Of a DNA stretch of 64,000 nucleotides, positions 47,511-63,036 are shown piece by piece. Below the pieces are notes generated by a model that was not told the origin of the DNA, made no database searches, and saw only the letters and a list, made by a program, of their open reading frames with translations. Numbering within the stretch: position 1 is the first letter of the stretch; each line of letters starts with the position of its first letter. This stretch comes from Streptosporangiaceae bacterium (GTDB lineage Bacteria; Actinomycetota; Actinomycetes; Streptosporangiales; Streptosporangiaceae), in the NCBI GenBank assembly GCA_030041195.1, contig JASHOI010000006.1, positions 1 to 64,000 of the forward strand. Direction: 5' to 3'. A program made the position numbers and the translations under genes.

Positions 47511-47563
47511 CGGCGGAGGGGCCCGCCGTCGACCGCGGATGAGCCGCCAACGGTCCCTGCCAG
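47511..47563 (+). promoter_or_regulatory. Variant fluoride-riboswitch-like element (class 2), before MFS permease
   Basis: Hairpin CGGCG/CGCCG with loop GAGGGGCC, second stem GCGG/CCGC, then CAACGG and TCCCTGCC. Loop GGGGCC pairs with GGTCCC. Same architecture as the fluoride aptamer, but ATG is GAG and TGATGG is CAACGG. A TAAGCT -10-like hexamer lies at 47498-47503. Confidence 0.75.
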
Positions 47564-47581
47564 GGGCTGGAGGATGGTCAG

Positions 47582-48796
47582 GTGCCCGAGCCCGGTGGTT
47601 CTGGATCCAGCCGGGTGCCGTTGCCTCGGCGAGCGGCCCAAGCGTCCCCAGCTCTCAAGTTTGTGCTGATGGTCGGCGTCATGAGTTTCTTCGCTGACTT
47701 TACCTACGAAGGGTCGCGCTCGGTCATCGGCCCTTACCTGGGCGCGCTCGGCGCCGGGGCGCTGGCGATCAGCGTGATCAGCGGGCTGGGCGAGTTCCTC
47801 GGTTACGGACTGCGCCTGTTCTCTGGGCGCAGCGCCGACCGGACCGGACGGTACTGGCCGATCACGATCGGCGGTTATGCGGTCCAGATGGCAGCGGTAC
47901 CGCTGCTCGCGCTGGCCAGGAACTGGCAGCTGGCCGCGCTGCTGATCATCGCCGAGCGGATCGGCAAGGCCACCCGAAACCCGCCGCGGGACGCGATGCT
48001 GTCGCACGCAGCGCGGGAAATGGGGTACGGCTGGGGCTTTGGCGTACACGAGGCGCTGGATCAGTTCGGCGCGATGTTCGGCCCCCTGCTCGTCGCGGTG
48101 GTCTTGGCGGTGAGCGGGCACGACTACCGGCTGGCGTTCGCGGCCCTCGCGATCCCGGCCGCGATCACGCTGTCGCTGGTGCTGATCGCACGCAGATTCT
48201 TCCCGCGACCGCAGGATCTTGCGGCCGGCCCGGACGGAGTAACCACTGGGGGCCTACCGCGGGTGTTCTGGGTGTACCTGGCCGCAGCCGCTCTGGCCGC
48301 CTCGGGGTTCGCGGACTTCCCGCTGATCGCGTTCCACTGGCAGCAGGCCGCTACCATGCAGCCGCCGCTCATCCCTGTGTTCTACGCGGTCGCGATGGCG
48401 GTCAGTGGCGTCGGGTCTCTTATCTTCGGGCGCCTATTCGACCGGTCCGGAATCGGGGTGCTGATCCCGCTGACCGTGGCAACCGCCGGGTATGCACCGC
48501 TGGTATTCCTCGGCGGCCTGTGGGCCGGGCTGGCGGGCGTAGCGCTGTGGGGGCTCGGAATGGGAGTTCAGGAGTCGATCATTCCCGCCGCCGTTGCGCC
48601 GATGGTTTCGCCAGACCGCCGGGCGTCCGCGTACGGACTGTTCACCGGCGCCTACGGCACAGCCTGGGTGCTGGGCAGCATCGTAATTGGCCTGCTGTTC
48701 GACACCTCGCTCGGTGCGGTCACCGCTTTCGCCGTGGCCGCTCAACTCGCGGCGATCCCATTCCTCCTGATCGTCCGCTCGCGCACGACAGCCTAG
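47582..48796 (+). CDS. MFS permease under a variant element
   Basis: 404 residues from GTG 47582 with GGAGG eight bases upstream. About twelve hydrophobic helices in two halves. The MFS loop 2-3 signature is GRSADRTGRYWPITIGG, and helix 1 contains FFADFTYEGSRSVIGPYL. The segment RIGKATRNPPRDAMLS after helix 4 is characteristic of a family of actinobacterial and acidophile permeases sometimes called YajR-like or drug-like. Substrate unknown. Its placement behind a fluoride-type aptamer makes an ion or weak-acid efflux role worth testing. The 3' end overlaps a convergent Nudix gene by four bases. Confidence 0.87.
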   Translation: MPEPGGSGSSRVPLPRRAAQASPALKFVLMVGVMSFFADFTYEGSRSVIGPYLGALGAGALAISVISGLGEFLGYGLRLFSGRSADRTGRYWPITIGGYAVQMAAVPLLALARNWQLAALLIIAERIGKATRNPPRDAMLSHAAREMGYGWGFGVHEALDQFGAMFGPLLVAVVLAVSGHDYRLAFAALAIPAAITLSLVLIARRFFPRPQDLAAGPDGVTTGGLPRVFWVYLAAAALAASGFADFPLIAFHWQQAATMQPPLIPVFYAVAMAVSGVGSLIFGRLFDRSGIGVLIPLTVATAGYAPLVFLGGLWAGLAGVALWGLGMGVQESIIPAAVAPMVSPDRRASAYGLFTGAYGTAWVLGSIVIGLLFDTSLGAVTAFAVAAQLAAIPFLLIVRSRTTA

Positions 48797-49257
48797 GGCT
48801 CGCGCGCCGGCCGCCAAAGGTTGGCCAGGTAAGGGGCGTACAGTTCGCGGTGGCGGTCGAGCATCGCGCGCAGGTGGCCGGCCACGGGTGGCCGCAGGTC
48901 CAGCTCCTGTATCCGGTCAACCGGGACGAACACTGGCGCCAGGCCCTTCTCGAGCTGCTCAGGCATCTGGTCCGGTGCCGGATCGGCAGCCAAGAATACG
49001 ATGTCGACGGTGCGCGGGCCGGAGTCCGGACCGCTGGCTTCCAGTACGTACGCCACCCTGTCGGGGTTGACGTAAAGACCGGTCTCCTCGCGCACCTCAC
49101 GGCGTGCGCACGCCGCCATACTCTCGCCGGGCCGGGGAGTGCCGCCGGGCAGTACCCAGTCGCCAGCACCGCTGCCAACACGATGCACCAGCAGAACCGT
49201 TCGCTTGCGGAGGACAATGGCCGAGCAGCGCAGCTCTACGCCGTCAGGCATGTTCAT
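48793..49257 (-). CDS. Nudix hydrolase
   Basis: 154 residues from ATG 49257 with AAGGAG five bases upstream; the long frame further upstream is a shadow of the PAP2 gene. Nudix box GGTPRPGESMAACARREVREETG is split as GGTPRPGESM and REVREETG near residues 40-62. N-terminal strand VELRCSAIVLRKRTVLLVHR and a C-terminal helix region follow. Substrate unknown. It sits 28 bases after the PAP2 gene and is probably co-transcribed with it. Confidence 0.88.
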   Translation of the reverse strand: MNMPDGVELRCSAIVLRKRTVLLVHRVGSGAGDWVLPGGTPRPGESMAACARREVREETGLYVNPDRVAYVLEASGPDSGPRTVDIVFLAADPAPDQMPEQLEKGLAPVFVPVDRIQELDLRPPVAGHLRAMLDRHRELYAPYLANLWRPAREP

Positions 49258-49285
49258 GCAACTCCTTAGGTATCTGCCGGTCCGG

Positions 49286-49996
49286 CTATGCCCGGCCGGA
49301 CTTCGCTGGTGCCGCCGAGGCGACGTCCGCGAGCTGCAGCCAGCCTTCGGCAAACAGCCACGCGGACAGTACGTCACTGGGCCAGTGCACGCCGAGATAA
49401 ATCCTGCTCGAGCCCACGCATACGGCAACGAGAAGCGGAACGCCGTGCCTGCCTAGGCCGCTGGTTGTACATCTAACGCAAGCTCCTGCCGTCAGGACCG
49501 CCAGCGACGTGTGCTTCGAAGGCATGCTGAATCCCTCGGGCTCGGTCAGCCATATCGCGTCAGGCGGCCGGGGCCGGGCAATCGCCCGGGACAGGATGCG
49601 GCGGACGACCGCTCCGGTGACCACCGCAAGGCCCGGCACGCACGCCTGCTGCCAGCTGCCCCGCCGCATCGCCATGGCGGTGGCGGCGGCTATGGAGATG
49701 GCCACGAAACGTGGCTCACCGAGCGAGCTGACCGTCCGGGCGGTTCGCACCGCGGCCGGGTTGCGCCCATTCTCGGCCAGCCTGATCACTGCCTGGTCGA
49801 GCCTGCCGATCAGGCCGTGTCCCGGCCGGGCGACGATCGCGGCGAGGCCGGCGAACGCTAGCGCGCTTCCGCAGGCGTGCCTAACCACCGTGCGCTCGAG
49901 TCCGGCCACAGCCCCGCTCCTCTCGGCTAGCCAGCAGGACCCATTGGCCACCGGGGCAATGCGCACGCGCCAATGCGCGGCTTCGGCGGGATCCAT
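49286..49996 (-). CDS. PAP2-family membrane phosphatase
   Basis: 236 residues. The three PAP2 motifs are present: RAIARPRPPD (K/R-x6-RP form), PSKHTS (usually PSGH; Lys replaces Gly) and SRIYLGVHWPSD (SRxxxxxHxxxD). Several hydrophobic helices surround them. Enzymes of this family dephosphorylate lipid phosphates such as undecaprenyl pyrophosphate or phosphatidic acid at the membrane. ATG 49996 has no strong ribosome binding site, so the start is uncertain. No aptamer is seen on its strand. Confidence 0.85.
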   Translation of the reverse strand: MDPAEAAHWRVRIAPVANGSCWLAERSGAVAGLERTVVRHACGSALAFAGLAAIVARPGHGLIGRLDQAVIRLAENGRNPAAVRTARTVSSLGEPRFVAISIAAATAMAMRRGSWQQACVPGLAVVTGAVVRRILSRAIARPRPPDAIWLTEPEGFSMPSKHTSLAVLTAGACVRCTTSGLGRHGVPLLVAVCVGSSRIYLGVHWPSDVLSAWLFAEGWLQLADVASAAPAKSGRA

Positions 49997-50198
49997 CGCC
50001 GAGTGGGCTCGCCACTGCGATCATGATAGGCGAGGCCCGTCTCAGGCCGCACGCCCCGGTAGGTGGTGTCTGATGTTACGCGCCTACGCCCTGATCGATG
50101 ACCACCTGAGCTGTACGCATCCCGCCTGCGCTGGCAGCCGCCGACCCGCCCGCCGGCCTTGCGAGGTTGGATTATCCGCTCGGCTACGCTATGAGCAA

Positions 50199-50250
50199 CG
50201 GCGGAGGGGCCCGCCGTAGACTGCGGAGACGCCGCCAACGGTCCCTGCCA
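50199..50250 (+). promoter_or_regulatory. Variant fluoride-riboswitch-like element (class 2), before HTH protein
   Basis: Hairpin ACGGCG/CGCCGT with loop GAGGGGCC, second stem GCGG/CCGC, then CAACGG and TCCCTGCC; loop GGGGCC pairs with GGTCCC. A TACGCT -10-like hexamer at 50185-50190 is embedded in CTCGGCTACGCT, shared with the element at 47511 (CTCGGCTAAGCT). Confidence 0.75.
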
Positions 50251-50270
50251 GCAGGCAGGAGGTTAGTGGC

Positions 50271-51191
50271 GTGCGCCCGAGCCACGACGCGGGCTGCTGC
50301 CCGTATGCATGGGGACCGGTTGATTCACCGGGTTCGACGCGTGACCACCCAACCGGGACCGTACCGGTCGAGACGGCAGCGCTGATCAGCCATCTCTATG
50401 ACTGCCAGGGGCTCTCAACATATGAGATCGCGAAGCGCGTTGGACTCAGCCGGCAACGCGTCGGGCGATTGCTGAACAAGGCTGGGGTCGCGGTCAAACC
50501 ACGTGGCGCGGGCCGACAGCGAAAGCCTGACCCGCAGCAAGCCGCACTTACCGACCTCGCCGTCCGTCTCTACGAGAACTCGAATCTGTCGTCGCGTGAG
50601 ATTTCGGTGCTTACCGGAATGCCAGAGCGGACGGTTAGAGACCGGCTGCGCGATCGGGGCGTACGCATGCGCACGCGAGGACGGGCCAACAGGGAGGACC
50701 GGGCAGCGGCGCCTGCGGAGGCGCTCGTTGAGCTGTACATCCGAGCAGGGCTGAGTGCGGCAGAGGCAGGCCGACGATTGGGGGTACCCGGCAGGGTGGT
50801 CCTCCGTACCGCGCACGATCAGGGCCTGCCGGTGCGCATCGGCGGGCCAGAGCCACGTCACGGACCCAGCGAGATAGAGCTGATCGATGCGCTGTATGCC
50901 GATCCGATGGTGCGGCAGATACTTTCCAAGAACGGGATCCTCCCCCGGCCGGCCGGAGGCCCGATCTGGCAGCGTTTTCCGGTGCCCGTATATATAAGCC
51001 CGGAGCTGGCGAGAGAACTGTACGTACCCTGTGGGCTAGGCCTGCGGCACATCGAGCTCATAACCGGCCAGCCGGCTGAGACCGTCCGAGATCTCCTGCG
51101 TGCGCAAGGAATCTCATTGCGGCAACAGGGCGGCAGATCACCGTTCATGCGAAGATGGCGGAGCGCAAATCGTGGCGCTCAACAGGCCTGA
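50271..51191 (+). CDS. Multi-helix-turn-helix DNA-binding protein
   Basis: 306 residues from GTG 50271, AGGAGG eight bases upstream. At least three HTH units in tandem: YDCQGLSTYEIAKRVGLSRQ, then NLSSREISVLTGMPERTVRDRLRDRG, then AGLSAAEAGRRLGVPGRVV, and a fourth weaker one (LGLRHIELITGQPAETVRDLL) near the C-terminus. These resemble resolvase- or homeodomain-type HTH repeats that bind extended DNA sites. There is no sensor domain. It may be the regulator of the surrounding variant-class genes, but targets cannot be deduced. Confidence 0.82.
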   Translation: MRPSHDAGCCPYAWGPVDSPGSTRDHPTGTVPVETAALISHLYDCQGLSTYEIAKRVGLSRQRVGRLLNKAGVAVKPRGAGRQRKPDPQQAALTDLAVRLYENSNLSSREISVLTGMPERTVRDRLRDRGVRMRTRGRANREDRAAAPAEALVELYIRAGLSAAEAGRRLGVPGRVVLRTAHDQGLPVRIGGPEPRHGPSEIELIDALYADPMVRQILSKNGILPRPAGGPIWQRFPVPVYISPELARELYVPCGLGLRHIELITGQPAETVRDLLRAQGISLRQQGGRSPFMRRWRSANRGAQQA

Positions 51192-51297
51192 CCTTTCCGC
51201 CTGGAGGCTTGCAGAAGATACGCAGCAATGGCTCGCGCTCGGGAGTCGCACAGCCCGCCGGCCACGTCTGCAGCCAGGAACAGGTACTGTTGACGGT

Positions 51298-51345
51298 AGG
51301 CGGAGGGGCTCGCCGCAAACGCGCCAAGGCCAACGGTCCCTGTGT
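51298..51345 (+). promoter_or_regulatory. Variant fluoride-riboswitch-like element (class 2), before ABC-F fragment
   Basis: Hairpin GGCG/CGCC with loop GAGGGGCT, a minimal second stem GCC/GGC, then CAACGG and TCCCTGTG; loop and tail pair with two wobbles. A TACTGT -10-like hexamer lies close upstream. Confidence 0.7.
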
Positions 51346-51366
51346 GGCGAACAGGATGCGTGCGGC

Positions 51367-51666
51367 ATGAACCAGATCATCGCGGTCAATCACGCCCGGA
51401 AGTCTTTCGATGGCAGGGTCGCCCTTGACGATGTGACGCTTGCCTTCCTGCCCAGCGCGAAGATTGGCGCTGCCGGGCCCAATGGCACCGGCAAGTCGAC
51501 GTTGCCGCGGATGATGGCCGGCCGGGCCGCGCTCACGTGCCTGGCCAGCACACGCGGGCTGCGGTGGGCGCCTCTGGACCCGAGATCTGGCGTCATCCAG
51601 CTGGTCACTTACGATGGCGAGCACCTCGGCCACGTCCGCCGAGACAGCGCCTGCGCCACAGGCTAA
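51367..51666 (+). pseudogene. Truncated ABC-F (EttA-like) ATPase N-terminus
   Basis: About 99 residues from ATG 51367. The first 55 residues fit the start of an ABC-F ATPase: KSFDGRVALDDVTLAFLPSAK, then Walker A GPNGTGKST and LPRMMAG. In EttA the same segment continues to the Q-loop and Walker B, but here the sequence turns into an unrelated tail and stops. No second ABC domain is found. ABC-F proteins act on the ribosome. It is either a broken gene that kept its riboswitch or a short product with a nucleotide-binding loop only. A stop-interrupted continuation was not found downstream. Confidence 0.6.
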
Positions 51667-51710
51667 GGATCAGCAGAACGCCGCCCTGAGGAGCGGCCGT
51701 TCACAGGGTC

Positions 51711-51768
51711 CACGCGATGAGGCTCGCGCAGCACCTGGATCCATATCCGGGCTGATGGCTTCTACCCC
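51711..51768 (+). promoter_or_regulatory. Fluoride riboswitch before the second dynamin operon
   Basis: Hairpin CGCG/CGCG with loop ATGAGGCT, second stem GGAT/ATCC, TGATGG, CTTCTACCC. Loop GAGGC pairs with GCTTC through a wobble. It is followed by three genes ending in the dynamin at 54975. Confidence 0.9.
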
Positions 51769-51900
51769 TTACGGCGTCAGCGACGCCGTTCATGCAGGTG
51801 GAGGCCTCGATGCCCGTTCGATGTCCATGGCAGACGCCGCAGCGTGCTCCCGTTGCTGCCGGCTGCACCGATCCTGACGGCGCGTGGAGAGGAGACCGTC

Positions 51901-52068
51901 GTGTCGCAACATCAGCATCCATCGCCACTGCCGCCCGACCCAGAACCCCGAACGGGCTGCTCACCACTGCCGCCAGACCCTGAGCCGCACGACGGCTGCT
52001 CACCATTGCCGCCCGATCCGCATACCCAGCCGTCGACGATCCGCCCTACCGCGGTATCGAACCGATAG
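51901..52068 (+). CDS. Proline-rich tandem-repeat peptide
   Basis: 55 residues from GTG 51901, after GAGGAG. Contains about 2.7 copies of a 13-residue unit, SPLPPDPEPRTGC and SPLPPDPEPHDGC followed by a partial SPLPPDPHTQ. The DNA copies of the unit differ mostly at third codon positions (CCC/CCA, GAC/GAT, GAA/GAG), which supports translation in this frame. No signal peptide. The TAG stop lies within the ribosome binding region of the next gene. An overlapping frame with ATG 51810 also has a good ribosome site, so the choice is not certain. Confidence 0.55.
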   Translation: MSQHQHPSPLPPDPEPRTGCSPLPPDPEPHDGCSPLPPDPHTQPSTIRPTAVSNR

Positions 52069-52078
52069 AGGAGCGACG

Positions 52079-52522
52079 ATGAGCCTCAGCGCCCGGGAAC
52101 AGCGGGCCTTGGACTCGATCCGCGAAGAGCTCGCCAAGTCCGATCGGCAGCTGACAGCAATCCTGGCCGCCTTCACGCGGCTGGTATCGAACGAGGATAT
52201 GCCGACTCGCGAGACGATCCACCAGAGCCCGTGGCGTGCCATCGGTGGTTCATGGCGTCGCCGACGAGAGGGCCCCCGAAGCGCAGCGAACTACTGGGCT
52301 CGCCCACCGCGCAGGCGCCTGAGCTTCACGCAGGCCGTTTTGGTGGTGTACCTGCTGATAACTGCCGGACTGATCGTCGCTGGCGTAGTCCTCGGCCCCG
52401 GAACCAGCCACAGTGCATGCCCACCGCTGTTGGCCATGACTTGCGCAAGTCCCGTTTCCGCACACAGTTCACGCCCCGCAGTGCATCACAACCAGGCCAG
52501 GTCATGGACACGGGGAGGATAG
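52079..52522 (+). CDS. DUF3040-like membrane protein
   Basis: 147 residues from ATG 52079, GAGGAG six bases upstream. N-terminus SLSAREQRALDSIREELAKSD resembles DUF3040 (LSEHEQRLLEQIE-type helix). A basic linker (SWRRRREGPR) precedes a single helix of about 24 hydrophobic residues (VLVVYLLITAGLIVAGVVLG), giving a membrane-anchored protein with an N-terminal cytoplasmic part. DUF3040 proteins usually have two helices; one seems to be missing here. It lies 17 bases before the dynamin gene, so it may recruit or regulate it at the membrane. Confidence 0.72.
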   Translation: MSLSAREQRALDSIREELAKSDRQLTAILAAFTRLVSNEDMPTRETIHQSPWRAIGGSWRRRREGPRSAANYWARPPRRRLSFTQAVLVVYLLITAGLIVAGVVLGPGTSHSACPPLLAMTCASPVSAHSSRPAVHHNQARSWTRGG

Positions 52523-52539
52523 GAACACGGGGAGGACAG

Positions 52540-54975
52540 ATGGACGAACTGAAGGCCTACGCCGACCGCCGGCTCGAGCTCGGCGACCTGATCCGGGCTG
52601 CGCTGCACCTGGCTCAGGCCAGCAGGGATGAGCAGGCCGATAGCCAGGCCAGGGACCTGCTGGCGCGGCTAGCCGCCGGCACGTTCCGGCTCGCGGTGGT
52701 GGGCCAGTTCAGCCGTGGCAAGTCGACACTGATGAACGCCCTGCTCGGCGGGCCTTACCTGCCGATGGGCGCGCTGCCGATGACGTCGGTGATCACGACG
52801 GTCCGCTACGGCAGCCACCCCAAGGCGATCGTGCGCCGCCGCGGGCAGAGCCTGGGCACCGAGGTGGCGCTGGCTGCACTGGCTGAGTACGTCGCCCAGG
52901 CCAGCGCGACACGAGCCGAGCAGCAGGTTGCCTCGGTCGAAGTGGAGATCCCGGTGGAGATCCTCCGGTTGGGGTTCGAGTTCATCGACACCCCCGGCGT
53001 CGGGTCGGCCATCGAGACCAGCACCGCGACCACGCGGCGGTTCCTGCCACAGGCAGATGCAGTGATCTTCGTCACCGGCTTCGACTCCCCTCTGACCCAG
53101 GCCGAGGAGGGATTCCTTGCCGACGCTGCCGGGCACGCCGGCAAGCTGTTCCTGGTGCTCAACAAGCGCGACCTGCTCTCTGGGCAGGATGCCGACGCCG
53201 TCGTGGAGTTCGTCAGGCACCGGCTGGGTGACCAGCTGGGCATAGCCGAGCCGCGCCTGTTCGCGCTGTCCGCGCTGGAAGGGCTGGAAGCGGTGCTCCG
53301 CGATGATGGCGAGCGGCTGGCCGGCAGCGGCCTGCCGGAACTGGACACCGAACTACGGGAGTTCCTGACGGTCGGCAAGGCGCAGGTGTTCTTGCGAAGT
53401 ATCGCTGGACACGCGGCCGACCTGGTGGCCGGGCAGCAGCGCGGCCTGCGGCTGGGCCGACTGTCTCTCGACGGGAGTCTCGCCCCGGAGGCAGTGCTGG
53501 CCGCTTTCGACGCGCGCATGGCAGACCTGGACCGCCAGCGAAAAGCCATAGCGGGCACGATCGCCGACCGGATCGAGGCCCGCTTGCCGGGTCTGCTCGC
53601 CACCCGGCACTCTGACTGGCAGCTGGGGCTGCTGGATTTGCTCGGCCCGCTTGCCGAGAGCGCCCTGCCGACCGGAGAGATGGACGGCGCGGTCCGCGAT
53701 CTGGTGGAAAAAGCCGGGGACCGCCTGGAACGGGCCGGTCGCGAGGTGATCAGCGACTGGCTGAGCCGGCGGACGGGCGAGGTGCTGGAGACCGTCACCG
53801 GCATGGTGGCGTCCGAGGTAGGCGGACTGCTGGAAGTGGCCAGGTCCCCCGGCTTGGCAGGAGCCGAGATCGTCGGCCTGGCTACCGAGGATGACCGCCG
53901 GAAGCTGGCGGGCTGGTCGGCTGAAGACGTCCCTGACCTGGCGATCCAGCCGCCAGAGTGGACCGTCCACGTCGAGCAGCCACGGCGGTCACGGCGCAAG
54001 GCGGGCTTCGGCGACGCCGAAGCCCGCGATCGTCTGGATGCCGCACTTGCCGCCGCCGCGGACGCGTTCACCGATCGCGTGCGGGCGGCATACCAGGGCG
54101 CCGCCCGGGACTGGGCAAGGCGGCTGGACGAGCAGACCGCCATCCAAATGCGCCAGGCAGCAGACCGCTTCCGCTGGTGCGTGCAAAACGTGCCCAGCGA
54201 TGATGACCTGGCCGCTTTGGGCCGCCTGGCCGCCCGCCTCGCCGCCTTCCAGGCCGCACTCGAGATACCGGGTCCGCCCCGCGGGCAAGCTGAGACCGTG
54301 ACACCGGCCGACAGCCCTGACGCCACCGCGCAGGGCGGCTGCACCGTGTGTCAGCAGATGGAACAGGCCCTGACCAGTTACCTGTTCACCGCCCAGTTTC
54401 GGCTCGCTACCCGCGACGACGAGCAGGAACGGCACGCGCTGGGCCAGGGATTCTGCCCTCTGCACACCTGGCAATACGCAGCCGTCGCATCCCCAGTCGG
54501 CATCTCCGCCGGCTACGCGCCGCTGGCCGCTTCGGTCGCCGAAGCGCTGGAGTCGCTCAGTAGGCAAGACTCCCCGGCCGCAGACCTGGCACGCGACGTC
54601 GCCTCTCTCACCGCCGGCCGGGGACGGTGCCCGGTTTGCGCGGCGCTGGCCGCCAGCGAGCGCACCGCGATCGCCGAGCTATTCTCAACCGCCCTGCCAC
54701 AGACGATCACACTGTGCCTGCGTCACCTAGCGCTGACCCTGTCCGCGGACGCGGACCCGCCGACATGCCGGGTGCTGCTGCGGGCCGCCGCGACTGCGCT
54801 GCGGCGAGAAAGCGAGGACATGCGCTCATTCGCGCTCAAACGCGAGGCCTACCGCCGCGGCCTGGTGACCGCCGGGGAATCCCGCGCCCACCTCGACGCG
54901 CTGCGCCGGCTCGTGGGGCTGCCCGCACTCACCCAGCCATGGGCCGATCAGGAATCAGCCGCATGGCTAGCGTGA
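52540..54975 (+). CDS. Dynamin-like GTPase with C-terminal zinc-ribbon modules (second copy)
   Basis: 811 residues from ATG 52540 after GGGGAGGAC; longer in-frame starts overlap the upstream gene. G1 GQFSRGKST at residues 55-63, G3 DTPGVGS, G4 NKRD. Zinc-type modules near residues 600-637 (CTVC...FCPLH) and 696-725 (CPVC...LCLRH). Clear paralogue of the protein at 9608-12028, with strong similarity in G domain and C-terminus and weaker in the middle. Expected to bind membranes and hydrolyse GTP. A fluoride riboswitch is at the head of its operon. Confidence 0.88.
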   Translation: MDELKAYADRRLELGDLIRAALHLAQASRDEQADSQARDLLARLAAGTFRLAVVGQFSRGKSTLMNALLGGPYLPMGALPMTSVITTVRYGSHPKAIVRRRGQSLGTEVALAALAEYVAQASATRAEQQVASVEVEIPVEILRLGFEFIDTPGVGSAIETSTATTRRFLPQADAVIFVTGFDSPLTQAEEGFLADAAGHAGKLFLVLNKRDLLSGQDADAVVEFVRHRLGDQLGIAEPRLFALSALEGLEAVLRDDGERLAGSGLPELDTELREFLTVGKAQVFLRSIAGHAADLVAGQQRGLRLGRLSLDGSLAPEAVLAAFDARMADLDRQRKAIAGTIADRIEARLPGLLATRHSDWQLGLLDLLGPLAESALPTGEMDGAVRDLVEKAGDRLERAGREVISDWLSRRTGEVLETVTGMVASEVGGLLEVARSPGLAGAEIVGLATEDDRRKLAGWSAEDVPDLAIQPPEWTVHVEQPRRSRRKAGFGDAEARDRLDAALAAAADAFTDRVRAAYQGAARDWARRLDEQTAIQMRQAADRFRWCVQNVPSDDDLAALGRLAARLAAFQAALEIPGPPRGQAETVTPADSPDATAQGGCTVCQQMEQALTSYLFTAQFRLATRDDEQERHALGQGFCPLHTWQYAAVASPVGISAGYAPLAASVAEALESLSRQDSPAADLARDVASLTAGRGRCPVCAALAASERTAIAELFSTALPQTITLCLRHLALTLSADADPPTCRVLLRAAATALRRESEDMRSFALKREAYRRGLVTAGESRAHLDALRRLVGLPALTQPWADQESAAWLA

Positions 54976-56729: not shown

Positions 56730-56871
56730 CCGCAACGAGGCAGCGACGGCTTCCGCCGGCGCCGGCTGCCCTGTCCACCGCCAGCGCGGAAGAGCAGGAC
56801 AGCCCAGGCTCAACCGTCATGGCCGCCGGTGAAGCCGCCGTGTCGGCCCGGAACCTCAAAGGGGGCCTCAG

Positions 56872-57156: not shown

Positions 57157-57173
57157 CGCAAGGGCCCACATCC

Positions 57174-57605
57174 ATGGCTGCCAGTGGTGGCGGAATGCCT
57201 GTCGTGAAAGCACTGACCCTGCGGCAGCCTTGGGCGTGGGCAGCAATTTACGGGGGCAAAGACGTCGAAAATCGCCGCTGGAGGACTAGGCACCGAGGAC
57301 CTCTGCTGATCCATGCCGGGATGGACGCCGATCCCGACGGTCCTGCATCGGTGCTCAAGACGATCGCCGATCCAGACGTATACGCTCATCCTCGGAGCGC
57401 CTGGGATGCGCGCGGGGCCATCATCGGCATGGTTTTTCTCGCCGATATTCTGACCGACTCGCCCAGCCAGTGGGCTATCCCGAGGTGGTACCACTGGGTC
57501 TTTGAGTTCCCCTCGCCGATAGAACCGCCCATCCCGCAACGCGGGCGTCAGGGTCTGTGGAAGCCTTCACCTGCTGTGATCGAGGCATTGCGGGACATTC
57601 TGTGA
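57174..57605 (+). CDS. ASCH-domain protein
   Basis: 143 residues from ATG 57174 (AAGGG upstream; ATG 57195 is an alternative). The ASCH fold, related to PUA-like RNA-binding domains, is indicated by VKALTLRQPWAWAAIYGGKDVENRRW (read as VKALTLRQPWAW and GGKDVENRRW), RGPLLIHAG, ARGAIIGMVFLADIL and a final helix after GRQGLWKPSP. ASCH proteins bind RNA or act as small hydrolases; specificity unknown. Same strand and close to the preceding small gene. Confidence 0.82.
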   Translation: MAASGGGMPVVKALTLRQPWAWAAIYGGKDVENRRWRTRHRGPLLIHAGMDADPDGPASVLKTIADPDVYAHPRSAWDARGAIIGMVFLADILTDSPSQWAIPRWYHWVFEFPSPIEPPIPQRGRQGLWKPSPAVIEALRDIL

Positions 57606-57650
57606 GGCGACGTTGACCGCGAGCCAGGCTCCTTGCCAAACTAACTGTCT

Positions 57651-57700
57651 GGCGAAGGGGCTCGCCCGGATTGCGGCAGACGCCGCTGACGGTCCCTGCA
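57651..57700 (+). promoter_or_regulatory. Variant fluoride-riboswitch-like element with A6-U38 pair
   Basis: Hairpin GGCG/CGCC with loop AAGGGGCT, second stem GCGGC/GCCGC, then TGACGG and TCCCTGC; loop GGGGC pairs with the GTCCC tract. It has A at position 6 and T at 38, where the other five class 2 copies have G and C, so the pair covaries. Positions 7 (A) and 41 (C) follow the variant class. Confidence 0.72.
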
Positions 57701-57726
57701 TCGTTCATCGATGTAAAGGACGGTCG

Positions 57727-57999
57727 ATGTCTCATGTGAGCGAGGACGAGGTCCTTCTGCTGTGGCGCTCGCTGCGGGCGTTCCGGTCGGGCAGGAAGCC
57801 AGCGTGCGCGCCACAGGGGCGCCCGCCACGCAGTGCCTGCCCACTTCAGGACACCTGCCCACGCTGGCAGGGACAGCCCGATGACCAGCTTGCGAGCATG
57901 GAGGAAAGTGCCGAGCAGACCGAGCTGAGACGATCAGGCTGGCCGTGTAGCAGGCTGCTGGATTTGCTGTCACCGGACCTCACCAGGATAGGCCCATAA
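57727..57999 (+). CDS. Small Cys-containing hypothetical protein under a variant element
   Basis: 90 residues from ATG 57727, AAAGGA six bases upstream. Cysteines occur as CAPQG, CPLQDTCP and a later C, possibly a small metal site; the N-terminus is helical and acidic (SEDEVLLLWRSLRAFR), the C-terminus mixed. No known family recognised. The good ribosome site and placement directly after an aptamer support it being expressed. A bidirectional hairpin terminator lies downstream. Confidence 0.62.
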   Translation: MSHVSEDEVLLLWRSLRAFRSGRKPACAPQGRPPRSACPLQDTCPRWQGQPDDQLASMEESAEQTELRRSGWPCSRLLDLLSPDLTRIGP

Positions 58000-58085
58000 T
58001 CTCCACGCAGTGGGGATTCGTGTCGGCGATCGCGAGCGCATCCGCACCGAGCGTGCCGAGATACAGCGGCCCCGGGAGGGCGCCA

Positions 58086-58120
58086 GCGCGGGCGAGCCCG
58101 GAGGTCGGGCCCGCCCGCGC
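58086..58120. terminator. Strong bidirectional hairpin between the 90-residue gene and satP
   Basis: A 15-base inverted repeat (GCGCGGGCGAGCCCG, five-base loop, CGGGCCCGCCCGCGC) with one mismatch. It lies 85 bases after the plus-strand gene and just after the satP stop, so it can end both transcripts. Confidence 0.6.
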
Positions 58121-58138
58121 CGTTCCGCCGACGGTGGC

Positions 58139-58771
58139 CTACTTGACCGGCGGTGGGCCGAACGGAAGGATCTTGCGGCCGAAGGTGGACTCGATGATGT
58201 CGCCGGCCGCGTGGTACCAGGCCAGCACCGCGAAGAGCAGCACGACAGCGCCGCCTGCCTTGGTCACGTTGGGCATGTTGTCCCAGGCACCGATTGACAG
58301 CAGGACCAGGCCGACGAAGATCAGCCAAATGATCACAGTGAGTACCAGGTCGGTGCGCAGCGAAGCGATCGCGAGGTAGAAGGTGATCACCGCGAATACG
58401 GCCAGGAACAGGCCGGTGGCCGAGGAGAGCTGCGCGGCGGGCACGCTGGTCGCGTAGAGCGTGTCGAACGCGGCGAGTATCACCCAGAACGGCCCGTAAG
58501 TGCCGAACACCGCGCCGCCGAATAGGTTGCCCCGCGAGAACTCCATAATTGCGACGATGATCTGCACCAAACCGCCGAAGAAGAACGCCGCAGGCAGCAC
58601 GATAGGGGTCCCGGCCGCGTTCAGCACGCCGGTCTGGTACATGCCGATCATGAACGATGTGGTGCCGAACGCCGTCACGGCCCACGGCGCCGGGTTGGCC
58701 ATTACCGCCGGGGCGGGCGGCGGAGCCGGGGCTGCCTCAGCCTCTTCCCCGATAGCACCTGATGTGGCCAT
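58139..58771 (-). CDS. SatP/YaaH (GPR1-FUN34) family acetate/succinate transporter
   Basis: 210 residues from ATG 58771, CAGGAG upstream. Six hydrophobic helices. The first carries NPAPWAVTAFGTTSFMIGMYQTGV, whose NPAPxG-type opening is the family signature (here split: NPAPWAVTAFG and TTSFMIGMYQ); GGLVQIIVAIMEFSRGNLFGG and YGPFWVILAAFDTLY follow, all typical. The family moves acetate or succinate, probably as acid or anion channels. It is under a variant riboswitch some 275 bases upstream, which makes small-anion or halo-acid transport a speculative idea. Confidence 0.88.
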   Translation of the reverse strand: MATSGAIGEEAEAAPAPPPAPAVMANPAPWAVTAFGTTSFMIGMYQTGVLNAAGTPIVLPAAFFFGGLVQIIVAIMEFSRGNLFGGAVFGTYGPFWVILAAFDTLYATSVPAAQLSSATGLFLAVFAVITFYLAIASLRTDLVLTVIIWLIFVGLVLLSIGAWDNMPNVTKAGGAVVLLFAVLAWYHAAGDIIESTFGRKILPFGPPPVK

Positions 58772-59046
58772 TGGGCATCACTCCTGTCCTGTCTCCGGCC
58801 GGCCGGGGTGGCCGGCGGGGTCCGCGGTGAACAGCGCTGCTGTGGTGTGGTGCGGGGATGCTGACGGGCGCGTAAACCCGCACGATCATGGCCGACCGGC
58901 CGGTGAGCAGCTTGACGCTGGCGCCCGTAACTGGGCGCGATACGCCACATGGCGTGGCGGTGGCGGCGTGACGTGCCGCCGACGGGGATACTGGCCGTGG
59001 CGAGATCACGGTCCAACATGGGGCACGCAGCCTCCTGTCCCGCGCT

Positions 59047-59096
59047 GGGCAGGGACCGTTGGCGGCGACCGCACTTAACGGCGAGCCCCTCCGCCG
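59047..59096 (-). promoter_or_regulatory. Variant fluoride-riboswitch-like element (class 2), before satP
   Basis: Minus strand: hairpin ACGGCG/CGCCGT with loop GAGGGGCT, second stem GCGG/CCGC, then CAACGG and TCCCTGCC. A TACGAT -10-like hexamer lies about 16 bases upstream on the minus strand. The leader to satP is about 275 bases and may hold a short peptide. Confidence 0.75.
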
Positions 59097-59634
59097 TCTC
59101 TGCTTCTGATCGTAGATCCGGCTTTGCGTCCGGTAAAGCGTGTGTCCCCTGAAGCCGCGCGTGGCGGTTGTTGCCAGCCGGGCGCGCCTCCCCGGTGCTG
59201 TCACAGTGGGAGGACCCGCCGGGCGACGGTGACGCGGCGCTCGATCCGGTCCTGCTGGCAACTCGCCACGCCGCTTCTGCTGCTGAGGGCTACCTTTCAG
59301 GCTCCGTCGCCCGGTAGACGCACGCGCTGAAGTCGTCGAGTGCTTCCTGGCACTTGGCCAGCGCGGCCGCGGCCGGCTCCGCCTGGGCGGAGCCGAAACC
59401 ATCCACCGCCCGGACTTTCTTGTGCCCTCTTGCCAGTCTTTCAGGTTCTTTGCCGCATTGGTTCAGCTCGGCCAGGGTGCAGCGGCCCGCGATCGCCTCG
59501 GCCCGAGTCTGGCCATGGCCGCGGCGCGAGTCAAGCAGGGTGTGTTCGCGCGCGCCGGGACGACGGGATGACCCGTGGTGAACATTCCGGATAATCGGAG
59601 AGAGAGCCGCTGCCGACCGAGGAGTCCTCCCGCG
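59097..59634. other. Intergenic region with hairpin and a possible gene remnant
   Basis: No intact gene is seen. On the minus strand, 59530 to the TAG at 59290 reads as a continuous frame ending in a plausible helical tail (AEAIAGRCTLAEL, ALAKCQEALDDFSACVY), but no start codon fits, so it may be the end of a lost gene. A 9-base perfect inverted repeat (GGCTCCGCC, two-base gap, GGCGGAGCC) lies at 59375-59394. Confidence 0.35.
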
Positions 59635-61293
59635 ATGACGATAGCCAGCCGTTTCTTCGAGCGGACGATGAAGCTGCCACCCGCGTCACACCGTGACGTG
59701 CAGGTCGAGCGCGACCTGAAGATTCCCATGCCCGACGGGGTGCACCTGCTCGCCGACCGCTACCTGCCACGCGGGGACGGGCGGCCGCCGCTCGTGCTGG
59801 TCCGCTCGCCGTACGGGCGGCGGAGCATCTGGGGGATCCTGTTCGGCCGGGTGCTGGCCGAGCGGGGCTTCCAGGTGGTCATCCAGAGCTGCCGCGGAAC
59901 GTTCGGCTCGGGCGGTACCTTCGACCCGTTCGGCCCCGATGAGCACGACGACGGCCTGGCCACGGTCGCGTGGCTGCGCGCACAGCCGTGGTACCCGGGT
60001 TCGTTCGCGACGACCGGGCCGAGCTACCTGGGCATGGTTCAATGGGCGATCGCCGCCGACGCAGGGCCCGAACTGAAGGCGATGTGCCCGCAGGTGACGA
60101 CCTCCGACTTCCGGGCTCCGTTCTACGGGGGCGAGGCGTTCTCCCTCCAGACGGCGCTGACCTGGGTCAACCAGGTCGCGGGCCAGGAACGGCGATTCGC
60201 GTTCGCCCGCCAGTCTCGGGAGGACCACCGGCTCCGGCCGCTGTTCGACCGGCTGCCGCTGGGCGATCTCGACCGGCTCGCCACCGGCGGCCACGTCGCG
60301 TACTACCAGGACTGGCTGGCCCACAGCGACCCGGGGGACGACTACTGGAAGGGCCGCCGGTTCAGCGACACCCTGGACCGGGTGGCCGCCCCGGTCAGCA
60401 TGGTCAGCGGCTGGAACGACTTCTTGCTGCCGTACCAGCTGCGTGACTACGCCGCGCTGCGCAGCGCCGGGCACGAGCCCTACCTGACCATCGGCCCGTG
60501 GCGGCACGCCGACCAGGAGGCGGTCGGCACCTGGGCCAGGGATTCGGTGGCCTGGCTGCGGGCTCATCTGCTCGGCGACCGGAGCCTCCTGCGGCCGGAC
60601 CCGGTCCGGATCTTCGTCACCGGCGCGGACGAATGGCGCGACCTGCCGGCGTGGCCGCCCGCCACCCGGCCGCAGCGCTGGCATCTTCAGCCAGACGGCG
60701 CGCTCGGCACCACGCCGCCGACCGCGAGCGAACCCGATCGCTACAGCTACCACCCGGGCGACCCCACGCCGAGCCTGGGCGGGCCGGTCGGCCTGCAGGG
60801 CACGGCGCGGATGGACAACCGCATGCTCGAGGCCCGCCCCGACGTGCTGACCTACACCAGCACGCCGCTGCCGGACGACCTCGAGGTGTTCGGCGAGGTC
60901 ACGGCCGACCTGTTCGTGCGCTCCAGCCTCGAGCACACCGACTTCTTCGCCCGGCTGTGCGACGTCGGCCCGAGCGGCGCGTCGATCAACATCTGTGACG
61001 CCCTGCTCCGGCTGGCGCCGGGCCGGCCGGCCCCCGAGCCGGACGGCGCGATCCGGGTGCGGTTCGTGCTCTGGCCCGCCGCGCACCGCTTCCGCCGCGG
61101 GCACCGGCTCCGGCTCCAGGTCTCCAGCGGCGCGCACCCCAGGTATGCGCGCAACCCCGGCAGCGGCGAGCCGCTCGCGACAGCGACCACGCTGGTCGCC
61201 GCGGACCAGCAGGTCCATCACGATCCCGAGCATCCGTCAGCGGTCATCCTGCCCGTCGCCAGCACCGTCCAGCCTGGCCAGGACCGCTCGTAG
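59635..61293 (+). CDS. CocE/NonD-type X-Pro dipeptidyl-peptidase-like hydrolase
   Basis: 552 residues from ATG 59635, GAGGAG upstream. An alpha/beta hydrolase of the CocE/NonD family: N-terminal IPMPDGVHLLADRYLPRG, the RSPYGRR loop, SCRGTFGSGG, and the nucleophile segment TTGPSYLGMVQW (GxSYxG, catalytic Ser). The C-terminal beta-sandwich (PDDLEVFGEVTADLFV, RLRLQVSSGAHPRY) is present. Such enzymes cleave acyl esters or Xaa-Pro peptides; substrate unknown. No aptamer upstream. The 3' end overlaps the convergent dynamin-like gene by 57 bases. Confidence 0.9.
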   Translation: MTIASRFFERTMKLPPASHRDVQVERDLKIPMPDGVHLLADRYLPRGDGRPPLVLVRSPYGRRSIWGILFGRVLAERGFQVVIQSCRGTFGSGGTFDPFGPDEHDDGLATVAWLRAQPWYPGSFATTGPSYLGMVQWAIAADAGPELKAMCPQVTTSDFRAPFYGGEAFSLQTALTWVNQVAGQERRFAFARQSREDHRLRPLFDRLPLGDLDRLATGGHVAYYQDWLAHSDPGDDYWKGRRFSDTLDRVAAPVSMVSGWNDFLLPYQLRDYAALRSAGHEPYLTIGPWRHADQEAVGTWARDSVAWLRAHLLGDRSLLRPDPVRIFVTGADEWRDLPAWPPATRPQRWHLQPDGALGTTPPTASEPDRYSYHPGDPTPSLGGPVGLQGTARMDNRMLEARPDVLTYTSTPLPDDLEVFGEVTADLFVRSSLEHTDFFARLCDVGPSGASINICDALLRLAPGRPAPEPDGAIRVRFVLWPAAHRFRRGHRLRLQVSSGAHPRYARNPGSGEPLATATTLVAADQQVHHDPEHPSAVILPVASTVQPGQDRS

Positions 61294-62964
61294 CGCCTGC
61301 TCCCGGCCGGCCAGCTCGGCAAGCTTGCCCTCGGCCTGGCCGGCCGTCTGCGCGCGGAGCCCGGCGGCCGTCCGCAGCGCCCTGTCCAGGCGGTCCGTGC
61401 TGCCGGAATAGCGGCGGCCCACGGCCAGGATCAGCTGCCTGGTGGCCTCCGCCAGGCGGTGCTGCAGATCCCCCCGGGCCCGGCCGATCTGCCGCTCGGC
61501 GAGGTCGCCAGCCTCGCCGAGCACGTGGTCCCGGGCCAGCCGCCGCCCGATTTCGCCGGGCACCCTGCGGCGCACCGCCCCCGCCAGCAGCTCCGCCTGA
61601 TCGACGTTCTCGCCGACCGAGTAGAAGAACCGCCGGTCCGGCGCCAGCCGGTCCTGCGCGCCCGCCGCGGCCAGCTCGAGCCCCAGCAGGTCGGCCGCTG
61701 CGTCACGAATCGCCTCAATTTCGGCCGTCAGGCCGCGTGTGAGCCGGCCGTCCAGGCTGGCGAGCCCGTCCTCTAGCTTTTCGCGCTGCGACTGGCGCCA
61801 CGCCTCGGCACCGCCGACAGCCAGCCGGACCAGCGCGGCCCTGCCCTGCCGCTGGATCTCGCCCGGCGACGCCGAAGCGAGCTCGCCGGCGAGCAGGCCG
61901 CTGATGGTTGTACGCAGCTCAGCGGCGAGCCGTGCGGTCTGCGCTTCAGCGGCCTCGTTCAGCGCGCCGAGCATCCGCTTGGACTCCGCGGCTGCCAGGT
62001 CGGCGGCCACGGTGCCCCGCTCCCGCACCGCAGCGAGCCGGGCGGCGAAGGCCGCGACCCGCCCGGCAGCGTCCGAGCTGCGCATTTCGGCCGCGCGCCG
62101 GGCCAGCGCTATCTCGTCGATCGCCGCACCGGCGATGCGGCGTAGCTGCCCGGCCGCGGATCGCCGCAGGTCCGCAGTCCGCCCGGTGCCGAGATACGCG
62201 GTGAAGTCAGCGAGAAAGCGGGCGAATCCGGTGTCGCCGGCGCCGGACAGCGCGGCCCTGGCCGACACGGGGTAGAGCTGCACCGGCTGGCCGGTGGCCT
62301 CGCGCACCACCCGCTCGGTGAACTCGGCGGCCTCCGCCAGCCCAGCCGCATCGGCGTAGTCCGCCTTGTTCAGCACGATGAATGTGGTCACCGAGAGCTC
62401 GTGGACGCGGCCGAGCAGGTCGCGCTCGGTCGCCGAGACCGGCGGGTCGGCAGTAAGCACGAAGATCGCGGCATCCATGGTGGGCAGCGCGCTGTCGGCT
62501 GCCGCGGTGTTGTGCGCGTGGACCGAACCGGTTCCCGGCGTGTCGACGATCTCCACGCCCCTGGCCAGGATCGGGGCATCCAGGTGGACCGTGATCGCGG
62601 CGACGCCGCGCGAGTTCCCGGGATTGCCGCGTTCGGTCCCGAACTCCTCGAGCGCCGGCAGAGGATGACGCTCGGTCCGGCCGCCGGCGAACGCCACGTC
62701 GAGCCGCTCGTCGGTCCCGTGCGTCACCGTGGTCGGCACCGCCGTCAGTGGTGTCACGCCCATCGGCAGGACGTCGCGGCCGAGCAGCGCGTTCACCAGC
62801 GTGCTCTTGCCCCGCTTCGCCTCCCCCACGACCAGCACCCGCAGCCGGGCGGCGGCGAGCCGGTCGCGCAGCGCGGCGAGCACGGCCGCGTCGGATTCAT
62901 CGGCCAGCGGGGTCAGCTCATCGAGCGCCAACGTCAGCGCGTCGGGCAGTTCGGGTGCGCGCAT
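61237..62964 (-). CDS. Dynamin-like GTPase without zinc-ribbon tail
   Basis: 575 residues from ATG 62964, GGAGG six bases upstream; the long frame above is a shadow of the leader. G1 GEAKRGKST at residues 47-55, G3 DTPGTGS, G4 NKADYAD, followed by a long helical region rich in Ala, Arg and Glu. It lacks the CxxC/CxxH modules of the other two dynamin-like proteins here. The switch loop GMGVTPLTAVPTT-type threonines (LPMGVTPLTAVPTTVTHG) fit the bacterial dynamin G2 region. A variant element ends 20 bases before the ATG, so its pseudoknot strand is next to the ribosome site, suggesting translational control. Confidence 0.86.
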   Translation of the reverse strand: MRAPELPDALTLALDELTPLADESDAAVLAALRDRLAAARLRVLVVGEAKRGKSTLVNALLGRDVLPMGVTPLTAVPTTVTHGTDERLDVAFAGGRTERHPLPALEEFGTERGNPGNSRGVAAITVHLDAPILARGVEIVDTPGTGSVHAHNTAAADSALPTMDAAIFVLTADPPVSATERDLLGRVHELSVTTFIVLNKADYADAAGLAEAAEFTERVVREATGQPVQLYPVSARAALSGAGDTGFARFLADFTAYLGTGRTADLRRSAAGQLRRIAGAAIDEIALARRAAEMRSSDAAGRVAAFAARLAAVRERGTVAADLAAAESKRMLGALNEAAEAQTARLAAELRTTISGLLAGELASASPGEIQRQGRAALVRLAVGGAEAWRQSQREKLEDGLASLDGRLTRGLTAEIEAIRDAAADLLGLELAAAGAQDRLAPDRRFFYSVGENVDQAELLAGAVRRRVPGEIGRRLARDHVLGEAGDLAERQIGRARGDLQHRLAEATRQLILAVGRRYSGSTDRLDRALRTAAGLRAQTAGQAEGKLAELAGREQALRAVLARLDGAGDGQDDR

Positions 62965-62983
62965 ACCGCCTCCTACCCTCCTC

Positions 62984-63036
62984 AGGCAGGGACCGTTGGC
63001 GGCAGTGCCGCAGTTGGATGGCGGGCCCCTCCGCCG
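62984..63036 (-). promoter_or_regulatory. Variant fluoride-riboswitch-like element (class 2), before dynamin-like gene
   Basis: Minus strand: hairpin GGCG/CGCC with loop GAGGGGCC, second stem GCGGC/GCCGC, then CAACGG and TCCCTGCC. Loop GGGGCC pairs with GGTCCC. The downstream ATG is 20 bases away. Confidence 0.76.

What the first reader, a model, noticed from the sequence alone, without database searches (positions are those of the whole stretch)
47511..63036. Variant class of the fluoride riboswitch with altered ligand-site residues
Six elements (47511, 50199, 51298, 57651, 59047 minus, 62984 minus) keep P1, P2 and the pseudoknot but change core positions. In T. petrophila numbering U7 becomes A and U41 becomes C in all six, while the 6-38 pair is G-C in five and A-U in one, a direct covariation. 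A40 and U48 are kept. The loop GGGGCC and tail GGTCCC covary away from GAGGCC/GGCCTC. Their genes (MFS, HTH, ABC-F fragment, small protein, SatP, dynamin-like) differ from the canonical set. This points to a related aptamer with changed affinity or a different ligand.
Basis: partly seen in the sequence, partly recalled or inferred. Interest (0 to 1): 0.95.

Follow-up and report, generated by a model that had tools for sequence, protein, structure and literature searches.

The report
Fluoride riboswitches with a rewired core
Six predicted RNA switches in this bacterial DNA stretch carry a changed version of the fluoride-riboswitch core that the Rfam model does not detect, and because close copies in other bacteria sit in front of fluoride-exporter and other fluoride-defence genes they likely still sense fluoride.

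Summary
Six elements keep the fluoride-aptamer fold but carry A7 and C41, with pair 6-38 as G-C in five and A-U in one. Rfam RF01734 misses all six even at E<=5. They are not a local oddity: one scan of 84,980 species genomes found 82 plausible copies in 50 assemblies, 49 labelled Actinomycetota. With positions 6 and 38 left free, 202 of 202 filtered elements pair there, 100 G-C and 102 A-U. Intermediates join the canonical core to the variant. "Different ligand" is not supported: elsewhere the variant precedes crcB, enolase, pyrophosphatase, MutS-like, NADHdh-family and Na+/H+ exchanger genes, and six Pfam families were found behind both cores. In five genomes without an RF01734 match the variant is the only match of our model and precedes crcB. 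Best reading: a new actinobacterial subtype of the fluoride riboswitch, likely sensing fluoride and predicted to turn translation on by freeing the ribosome-binding site. Altered affinity is untested. A third element form, also missed by Rfam, lies in the same window.

The parts
47512..47559 (+). Variant fluoride-type aptamer, core G6 A7 | C38 A39 A40 C41 G42, pseudoknot GGGGC/GUCCC
   Evidence: R1 67.2 bits; not hit by RF01734 at E<=5
47582..48796 (+). MFS transporter gene behind 47512
   Evidence: Pfam MFS_1 1.3e-21
50200..50247 (+). Variant aptamer, core GA|CAACG
   Evidence: 66.8 bits
50271..51191 (+). HTH DNA-binding protein gene behind 50200
   Evidence: Pfam HTH_23 and related
51299..51342 (+). 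Variant aptamer, core GA|CAACG, very short P2 (about 2 bp)
   Evidence: 52.7 bits
51367..51666 (+). Truncated ABC-F-like ATPase gene (99 aa)
   Evidence: Pfam ABC_tran 2e-4, below cut-off; longer relatives behind variants in L009 and L022
57651..57698 (+). Variant aptamer, core AA|UGACG (A6-U38 form)
   Evidence: (49.7 bits)
57727..57999 (+). Small conserved protein (90 aa); related genes elsewhere carry AU|UGACG (L097) or GA|CAACG (L012) leaders
   Evidence: no Pfam match
59050..59095 (-). Variant aptamer, core GA|CAACG
   Evidence: 66.6 bits
58139..58771 (-). SatP/GPR1-FUN34-YaaH transporter gene, about 280 nt behind 59050-59095 with a small ORF (58705-59019) between
   Evidence: Pfam Gpr1_Fun34_YaaH 7.9e-37
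62987..63035 (-). Variant aptamer, core GA|CAACG
   Evidence: 66.0 bits
61237..62964 (-). Dynamin-like GTPase gene behind 62987-63035
   Evidence: Pfam Dynamin_N 1.1e-24
47394..47457 (-). Canonical fluoride riboswitch, divergent partner of the variant at 47512
   Evidence: RF01734 35.4 bits
26985..27047 (+). Canonical-core element before inorganic pyrophosphatase (27070-27573), for comparison
   Evidence: RF01734 29.2 bits, below the gathering score; Pfam Pyrophosphatase 3.1e-58
6303..6363 (+). Canonical element before a MutS_V ATPase gene, for comparison
   Evidence: RF01734 38.6 bits; Pfam MutS_V 6.6e-19

Best explanation
By fold and covariance-model homology these six elements are natural core variants of the fluoride riboswitch aptamer (G6-C38 or A6-U38, with A7, C41 and a G11.U44 pseudoknot wobble) that likely sense fluoride and are predicted to switch on translation of the gene behind them. 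Shown: the fold elements, the 6-38 covariation, the chain of intermediate cores, and the shared gene families. [quoted passage not shown] The 3' pseudoknot strand and tail would then no longer pair with the region around the Shine-Dalgarno sequence. The canonical A6-U38 is a reversed Watson-Crick pair (PMC11586693, PMC10687018, passages). G6-C38 would be the equivalent G:C trans (Levitt) pair, which would keep the geometry. According to PMC3902895 that pair is weak alone and is stabilised by a dication on the guanine, which would suit a site built around Mg2+. A7/C41 and U44 would be co-adapted changes that keep the pocket working, perhaps with a shifted affinity (untested).
For: Same core in 82 plausible copies in 50 assemblies. 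R1 finds canonical aptamers as the next best matches in the window. 6-38 is G-C 100, A-U 102, others 0 among 202 filtered elements; in a 136-row subset A-U 71, G-C 65, unpaired 0. Intermediates GU|CAACG, AU|UGACG, AA|UGACG and GA|CAAUG exist. Pfam families found behind both cores: CRCB, Pyrophosphatase, MutS_V, NADHdh, Na_H_Exchanger, Dynamin_N; enolase behind GA and GU cores. Published canonical regulon holds exporters, antiporters, pyrophosphatase, enolase, formate hydrogen lyase and mutS (PMC11139923 passages; PMC2864571 passages). RF01734 finds nothing at E<=0.01 in 12 of 49 variant-bearing genomes. Masking the pseudoknot strands raises the predicted unpaired chance of the Shine-Dalgarno from 0.26 to 0.42, against 0.27 for a control mask (71 variants, p 4e-8), in the same direction as canonical elements (0.15 to 0.40, n 56).
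Against: No binding or expression data exist. The B. cereus U41A mutant does not respond to fluoride, and U41 is called highly conserved there (PMC11077080 passage); I found no tested aptamer with A7. RF01734 matched 0 of 6 window variants and 0 of 17 in eight further loci even at E<=5; it reaches a few A7 elements weakly below its cut-off, for example L054 at 21.4 bits and the GA|CAAUG element of L074 at 26.2 bits. The G:C trans pair is described as rather unstable in isolation (PMC3902895 abstract). Several window genes (MFS, HTH, SatP, small protein) have no role in fluoride defence that I could show. Masking lowered Shine-Dalgarno exposure by more than 0.05 in 9 of 71 variants and raised it by more than 0.05 in 45.
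Confidence: 0.8

Rival explanations
1. The variant senses a different ligand (another anion, metal or metabolite) that rises together with fluoride stress.
For: Residues 7 and 41 differ from the canonical core in 6 of 6. Window genes include MFS, SatP and HTH, which are not classic fluoride genes.
Against: The variant fronts crcB, enolase, pyrophosphatase and MutS-like genes elsewhere. Six gene families carry both cores. In five genomes the only R1 match fronts crcB and RF01734 finds nothing. Stepwise intermediates exist.
Confidence: 0.06
2. The variant is a ligand-blind structured leader, or one that answers mainly to Mg2+, that keeps the fold but lost fluoride sensing.
For: The Mg2+-docked fold is known to form without fluoride in B. 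cereus (PMC8752731 passages). U41A abolishes response there.
Against: Positions that the search pattern left open (38, 39) or half open (6, 9, 41, 44) are nearly fixed over 50 assemblies. Single R1 match before crcB in some genomes. A40 and U48 are kept in 6 of 6 window elements.
Confidence: 0.08
3. The elements are decayed or mobile repeat copies of canonical riboswitches without function.
For: Several copies lie in one window, and one gene behind them is truncated (51367-51666).
Against: Between elements the J and P2 sequences are diverse while the core is nearly fixed, in part because the pattern demanded it. Predicted coupling to the Shine-Dalgarno is kept. The same gene-leader pairings recur across genera. 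The pattern had no match in viral contigs.
Confidence: 0.03

Closest known systems
Fluoride riboswitch (crcB motif, Rfam RF01734; T. petrophila and B. cereus aptamers)
   Same: P1 with 8-nt loop, pseudoknot 8-12/43-47, P2, A40-U48, paired 6-38, G8, G42; same regulated gene families; leader competes with an expression platform
   Different: 6-38 mostly G-C, A7 in place of U7, C41 in place of U41, mostly C38-A39, pseudoknot nearly always GGGGC/GUCCC with a G.U wobble; window copies not detected by RF01734; predicted platform is the ribosome-binding site, as for canonical elements of these genomes, whereas the studied B. cereus switch works on a terminator (terminators were not tested here)
Levitt base pair of tRNA (G15-C48)
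   Same: A G:C trans Watson-Crick tertiary pair, metal-assisted (PMC3902895 abstract); that it also exchanges with A-U in tRNA is recalled
   Different: Only a geometric analogy for pair 6-38; no homology
Variant riboswitch classes with altered ligand (guanine-family variants, PMC9295807, search listing only)
   Same: Variants of a known riboswitch class, as named in that title; that the changes lie around the ligand site is recalled
   Different: There ligand specificity was shown to change (title); here the shared genes speak for the same ligand

Membership tests
Fluoride riboswitch | P1, 8-nt loop, pseudoknot and P2 in crcB-motif order | tested here: met
   6 of 6 for P1, loop and pseudoknot; P2 at least 4 bp in 5 of 6, about 2 bp in 51299
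Fluoride riboswitch | A40-U48 linchpin letters | tested here: met
   6 of 6
Fluoride riboswitch | Paired 6-38 (A6-U38 in known structures) | tested here: met
   Pairing kept with full covariation in the filtered set; the letters A-U are kept in only 1 of 6
Fluoride riboswitch | Conserved U7 and U41 | tested here: not met
   A7 and C41 in 6 of 6; C41 also occurs with U7 in intermediates
Fluoride riboswitch | RF01734 gathering score of 34 bits | tested here: not met
   0 of 6 in the window and 0 of 17 in eight loci at E<=5; so it is filed as a new subtype, not as an RF01734 member
Fluoride riboswitch | Control of fluoride-defence genes | tested here: met
   CRCB, enolase, pyrophosphatase, MutS_V, NADHdh, Na_H_Exchanger behind variants; not for all window genes
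Fluoride riboswitch | Selective fluoride binding with Mg2+ | not testable with these tools
   needs in-line probing, ITC or NMR
Fluoride riboswitch | Ligand state coupled to an expression platform | tested here: inconclusive
   Secondary-structure prediction supports Shine-Dalgarno release; no experiment

The most novel reading that the evidence does not exclude
Actinobacterial fluoride islands run a tiered fluoride response: the canonical A6-U38/U7/U41 aptamer and the Levitt-type G6-C38/A7/C41 aptamer, plus a third hairpin-inserted form, sense the same ion with different thresholds or kinetics and are assigned to different genes in one genome, so a single cell reads several fluoride levels with natural core mutants of one aptamer.
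Probability: 0.35. Interest if true: 0.78.

Novelty: new variant of a known kind. Interest (0 to 1): 0.6.

Why it matters
It gives a natural series of aptamers from the canonical to the rewired core, which makes the role of residues 6, 7, 38, 41 and 44 around a Mg2+/F- site directly testable. It shows that the curated model misses a branch of the family: in three large genomes of the Actinomycetota sample a GU-core element sits before crcB while RF01734 finds nothing at E<=1e-3 (12 candidates scored per genome), so fluoride regulons there are probably under-annotated. It also names new candidate fluoride-response genes, such as a dynamin-like GTPase that is found behind both cores.

Tried and rejected
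Different ligand judged from the window genes alone: rejected after the regulon comparison across genomes. Variants as repeats or mobile elements: not supported, and no match in viral contigs. Two of the 84 scan matches (L037, candidate division WS1; L040, Gammaproteobacteria) were dropped as chance by eye: GCCCC tails and none of the other shared letters. One kept copy (L025) lies in a MAG labelled Acidobacteria; mis-binning was not checked. L043 is a short row and L070 and L113 are long-branch rows in the dynamin tree; trees were quick ones, giving at least 1 (dynamin, 20 rows), 2 (MutS-like, 12 rows) and 1 (pyrophosphatase, 6 rows) changes of pair 6-38 by parsimony; the dynamin-like genes with A-U cores form one distant branch. 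The MFS set was too small for a tree (1 row passed the filter). The first anti-Shine-Dalgarno test (longest helix) was weak: 6.64 against a permuted mean of 6.06, maximum 6.36 of 200. Its position-49 partner counts are circular, because the helix was chosen for pairing, and I do not use them. In single folds of the six window elements the longest such helix did not always touch the Shine-Dalgarno. One search used 156 elements whose chosen gene start lies 12-80 nt behind the tail; others were left out. One search scored only 14 candidates per genome, so its 11 of 396 (query genome included) is a lower bound. The pair counts are not corrected for relatedness. The retrieval pattern fixed A7 and allowed R at 6 and 9 and Y at 41, 44 and 46; 38 and 39 were free. 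The finder forced P1, pseudoknot, G8, A40, G42, U48 and a P2 of at least 3 bp; 6 and 38 were free. In the counting I also required A or U at 7, C or U at 41, a purine at 39, P1 beginning GG or CG and an 8-nt loop, and left out elements of the third form and elements over 62 nt; the third form does show A-C and C-C at 6-38. Fisher values came after a filter on 6-38 and are not cited for that pair. A tRNA-like tail behind the L047 element was not confirmed by ARAGORN.

Papers: PMC2864571, PMC11139923, PMC11077080, PMC8752731, PMC10687018, PMC11586693, PMC13273304 and PMC4666395 were seen as passages; PMC3902895 as abstract, section list and passages; PMC9295807 and others as search listings. Baker et al. 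2012 is not held, so I cannot say whether its alignment holds such variants. Searches for a described variant; none of the listed titles or abstract openings describes this core, and most lists were capped (30 of 62, 15 of 18, 4 of 4, 12 of 24, 15 of 16, 10 of 1,398).
Full report
What is there. Each has P1 (GGCG/CGCC), an 8-nt loop whose last six bases read GGGGC[C/U], a P2 stem (only about 2 bp in 51299), and a tail ..ACGGUCCCU.. that closes a pseudoknot GGGGC/GUCCC. In T. petrophila numbering they have A7 and C41 in 6 of 6, G6-C38 in five and A6-U38 in one, and A40 and U48 in all six. The pattern matched 6 times in the window and 0 times in 100 shuffles. Rfam RF01734 reports six canonical fluoride riboswitches at gathering level in the same window and four more below it, but none of the six variants even at E<=5.

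Are they related to the fluoride aptamer? A covariance model (R1) built from 88 variants, the window's six included, with P1 and P2 only, ranks the six first (49.7-67.2 bits). It places four canonical fluoride aptamers of the window next (22.5-26.8 bits, E 1.7e-5 to 2.4e-4), above the best match that is no known element at 16.6 bits.

Are they elsewhere? One scan of 84,980 species genomes found 84 matches in 72 stretches. I dropped two as chance by eye (L037, L040). The remaining 82 lie in 70 stretches of 50 assemblies by accession prefix; 69 stretches (49 assemblies) are labelled Actinomycetota (Streptosporangiaceae MAGs, Streptacidiphilus, Actinacidiphila, Streptantibioticus, Streptomyces, Propionicimonas, Cellulomonas, Sciscionella and others) and one Acidobacteriota (L025). 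Positions that the pattern left open or half open are almost fixed: of 88 (82 plus the window's six), C38 in 86, A39 in 85 (both free), C41 in 87, G9 in 88, U44 in 88 (two letters allowed). No match was found in viral contigs. In an even sample of 396 Actinomycetota genomes, RF01734 matches 90 at E<=1e-3 (69 over cut-off) and a broad GUCCC-type pattern matches 6, the query genome included, with 0 for the reversed-pattern control. So the form is rare and nearly clade-bound.

The 6-38 pair. A finder that fixed only P1, pseudoknot, G8, A40, G42, U48 and a P2 of at least 3 bp, and left 6, 7, 38, 39 and 41 free, gave 190 hits in 592,826 nt against 24 in a mononucleotide shuffle. Over all loci, 202 distinct elements that passed a further filter (A/U at 7, C/U at 41, purine at 39, P1 beginning GG or CG, 8-nt loop, at most 62 nt, third form left out) have 6-38 as G-C 100 and A-U 102, with no other combination. 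On a 136-row subset the pair is A-U 71, G-C 65, unpaired 0; P1, pseudoknot and 40-48 in that count are forced by the finder and prove nothing. Before that filter the hit list also held A-C 2, C-C 2 and C-G 3; the A-C and C-C cells are third-form elements. Published structures have A6-U38 as a reversed Watson-Crick pair (PMC11586693 and PMC10687018, passages), and a G:C trans pair is the Levitt pair (PMC3902895, abstract). The exchange of A-U for G-C is what a kept tertiary pair would show. That it is a Levitt pair here is inference.

Intermediates. By core (6 7 | 38-42) the finder saw AU|UGAUG 54, GA|CAACG 52, GU|CAACG 16, AU|UGACG 16, GU|CGAUG 9, AU|UAAUG 5, GU|CAAUG 3, AU|UAACG 2, AA|UGACG 2, GA|CAAUG 2 and single or background types; most GU|CGAUG and two of three GU|CAAUG belong to the third form. 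In 225 elements A7 goes with C41 in 86 and with U41 in 3; U7 goes with U41 in 93 and C41 in 43; C41 goes with U44 in 123 and U41 with C44 in 89, with 12 crossed cases (6 of each kind) and one G44. The A7 number is inflated by the way loci were fetched. The chain canonical -> AU|UGACG or GU -> GA is populated at each step. Quick gene trees need at least 1 (dynamin-like), 2 (MutS-like) and 1 (pyrophosphatase) changes of the 6-38 type.

Genes. In the window the variants precede MFS_1, HTH, an ABC-F fragment, an unnamed 90-aa protein, SatP (via a small ORF) and a dynamin-like GTPase. Elsewhere they precede CRCB (L062, L055, L023, L048, L052, L066, L025), enolase (L056), pyrophosphatase (L068), MutS_V (L030), NADHdh (L071), Na_H_Exchanger (L045), DUF2180 (L045) and NUDIX (L015). 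Canonical-core elements precede CRCB (L125, L129, L131, L138), Dynamin_N (L141, L142) and Na_H_Exchanger (L139), and pyrophosphatase, MutS_V and NADHdh in the window. So six Pfam families stand behind both cores. Pfam was run on 46 chosen proteins in all, not on every gene. These families fit the published regulon of the canonical switch: exporters, antiporters, pyrophosphatase, enolase, formate hydrogen lyase and mutS (PMC11139923 and PMC2864571, passages); a dynamin-like gene is not named in the passages I saw. There is a bias by gene: 16 of 16 members of the crcB cluster had G6-C38 cores (L044 is an uncertain member) and 18 of 19 of the NADHdh-like cluster had A6-U38 cores, though crcB stands behind canonical cores in other genomes.

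Genomes with only the variant. Of 49 variant-bearing genomes, 37 also have RF01734 matches at E<=0.01 and 12 have none. One of the 37 (G036) has no other RF01734 match than its own GA element at 21.4 bits. In five of the twelve the variant is the single R1 match and the gene behind it is a Pfam-confirmed crcB (L025, L048, L055, L062, L066). In three large genomes of the 396-genome sample (G177, G220, G231) a GU|CAACG element precedes a crcB-like gene (Pfam-confirmed in L116, read by eye in L115 and L117) and RF01734 finds nothing at E<=1e-3.

Mechanism. With the pseudoknot strands masked, as a stand-in for the bound state, the mean predicted unpaired chance of the Shine-Dalgarno rises from 0.26 to 0.42 in 71 variants, while a control mask gives 0.27 (Wilcoxon p 4e-8); it rises by more than 0.05 in 45 and falls by more than 0.05 in 9. 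U7 intermediates (0.26 to 0.52, n 29) and canonical elements (0.15 to 0.40, n 56) behave alike. This supports translational ON control. It is a prediction without pseudoknot energies and with gene starts chosen by a simple rule; terminators were not tested.

Limits. The window's own genome is not held, so its taxon is unknown; shared gene-leader pairs suggest a Streptosporangiaceae-like soil actinobacterium (inference). No binding data exist. Counts are not corrected for relatedness. Only one genome-collection scan was allowed, and it fixed A7.

Verdict. A real subtype of the fluoride riboswitch, not described in the listings, most likely still a fluoride sensor. The different-ligand reading is unlikely; altered affinity is open and is the interesting question.

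Noticed in passing
window 25857-25929 (-), 27726-27795 (+), 49933-50000 (-): A third element form: GGCGNUGGANCCCGCC, an inserted hairpin, then GGCC[A/G]AUGGNUCCUG; 17 distinct copies in the loci, the window's three included. Pseudoknot pair 10-71 of alignment A3 shows five standard pair types (UG, CG, AU, GC, UA) with 3 of 17 unpaired, while the other five pseudoknot pairs never vary. Precedes PAP2 phosphatase (Pfam in the window), a small 'GNGL' protein that by eye also stands behind a GA (L028) and a canonical (L015) element, and a MutS-like gene (L021). The window's three are not hit by RF01734 at E<=5; one copy in L024 reaches it at 23.8 bits.
   Followed up: partly
window 6303-63035: About 20 fluoride-type elements of three core forms in one 64-kb window (ten by RF01734 at E<=5, two more by the finder, six variants, three of the third form); mixed islands also in Streptacidiphilus sp. 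4-A2 (G005:C4:6707643-6747824) and others.
   Followed up: partly
window 47394-47457 (-) and 47512-47559 (+): A canonical and a variant element stand back to back about 55 nt apart, ahead of a NADHdh-family gene and an MFS gene in opposite directions.
   Followed up: no
window 51367-51666: The ABC-F-like gene is cut to 99 aa here, while the copy in L009 runs 533 aa to the contig end; the leader is intact.
   Followed up: no
window 58705-59019 (-): The small ORF between the 59050-59095 element and SatP begins MLDRDL, like the start of the HTH protein behind the variant in L008 (MLMLDRDL), as if the leader and first codons of one gene had been moved in front of another.
   Followed up: no
L115, L116, L117 (genomes G231, G177, G220): GU|CAACG core before crcB-like genes in three 7-10 Mb actinobacterial genomes without an RF01734 match at E<=1e-3: a probably under-annotated crcB leader.
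   Followed up: partly
L047:6850-6947 (-): The sequence right behind a variant element looks by eye like the 3' end of a tRNA gene; ARAGORN finds no tRNA gene in L047.
   Followed up: partly
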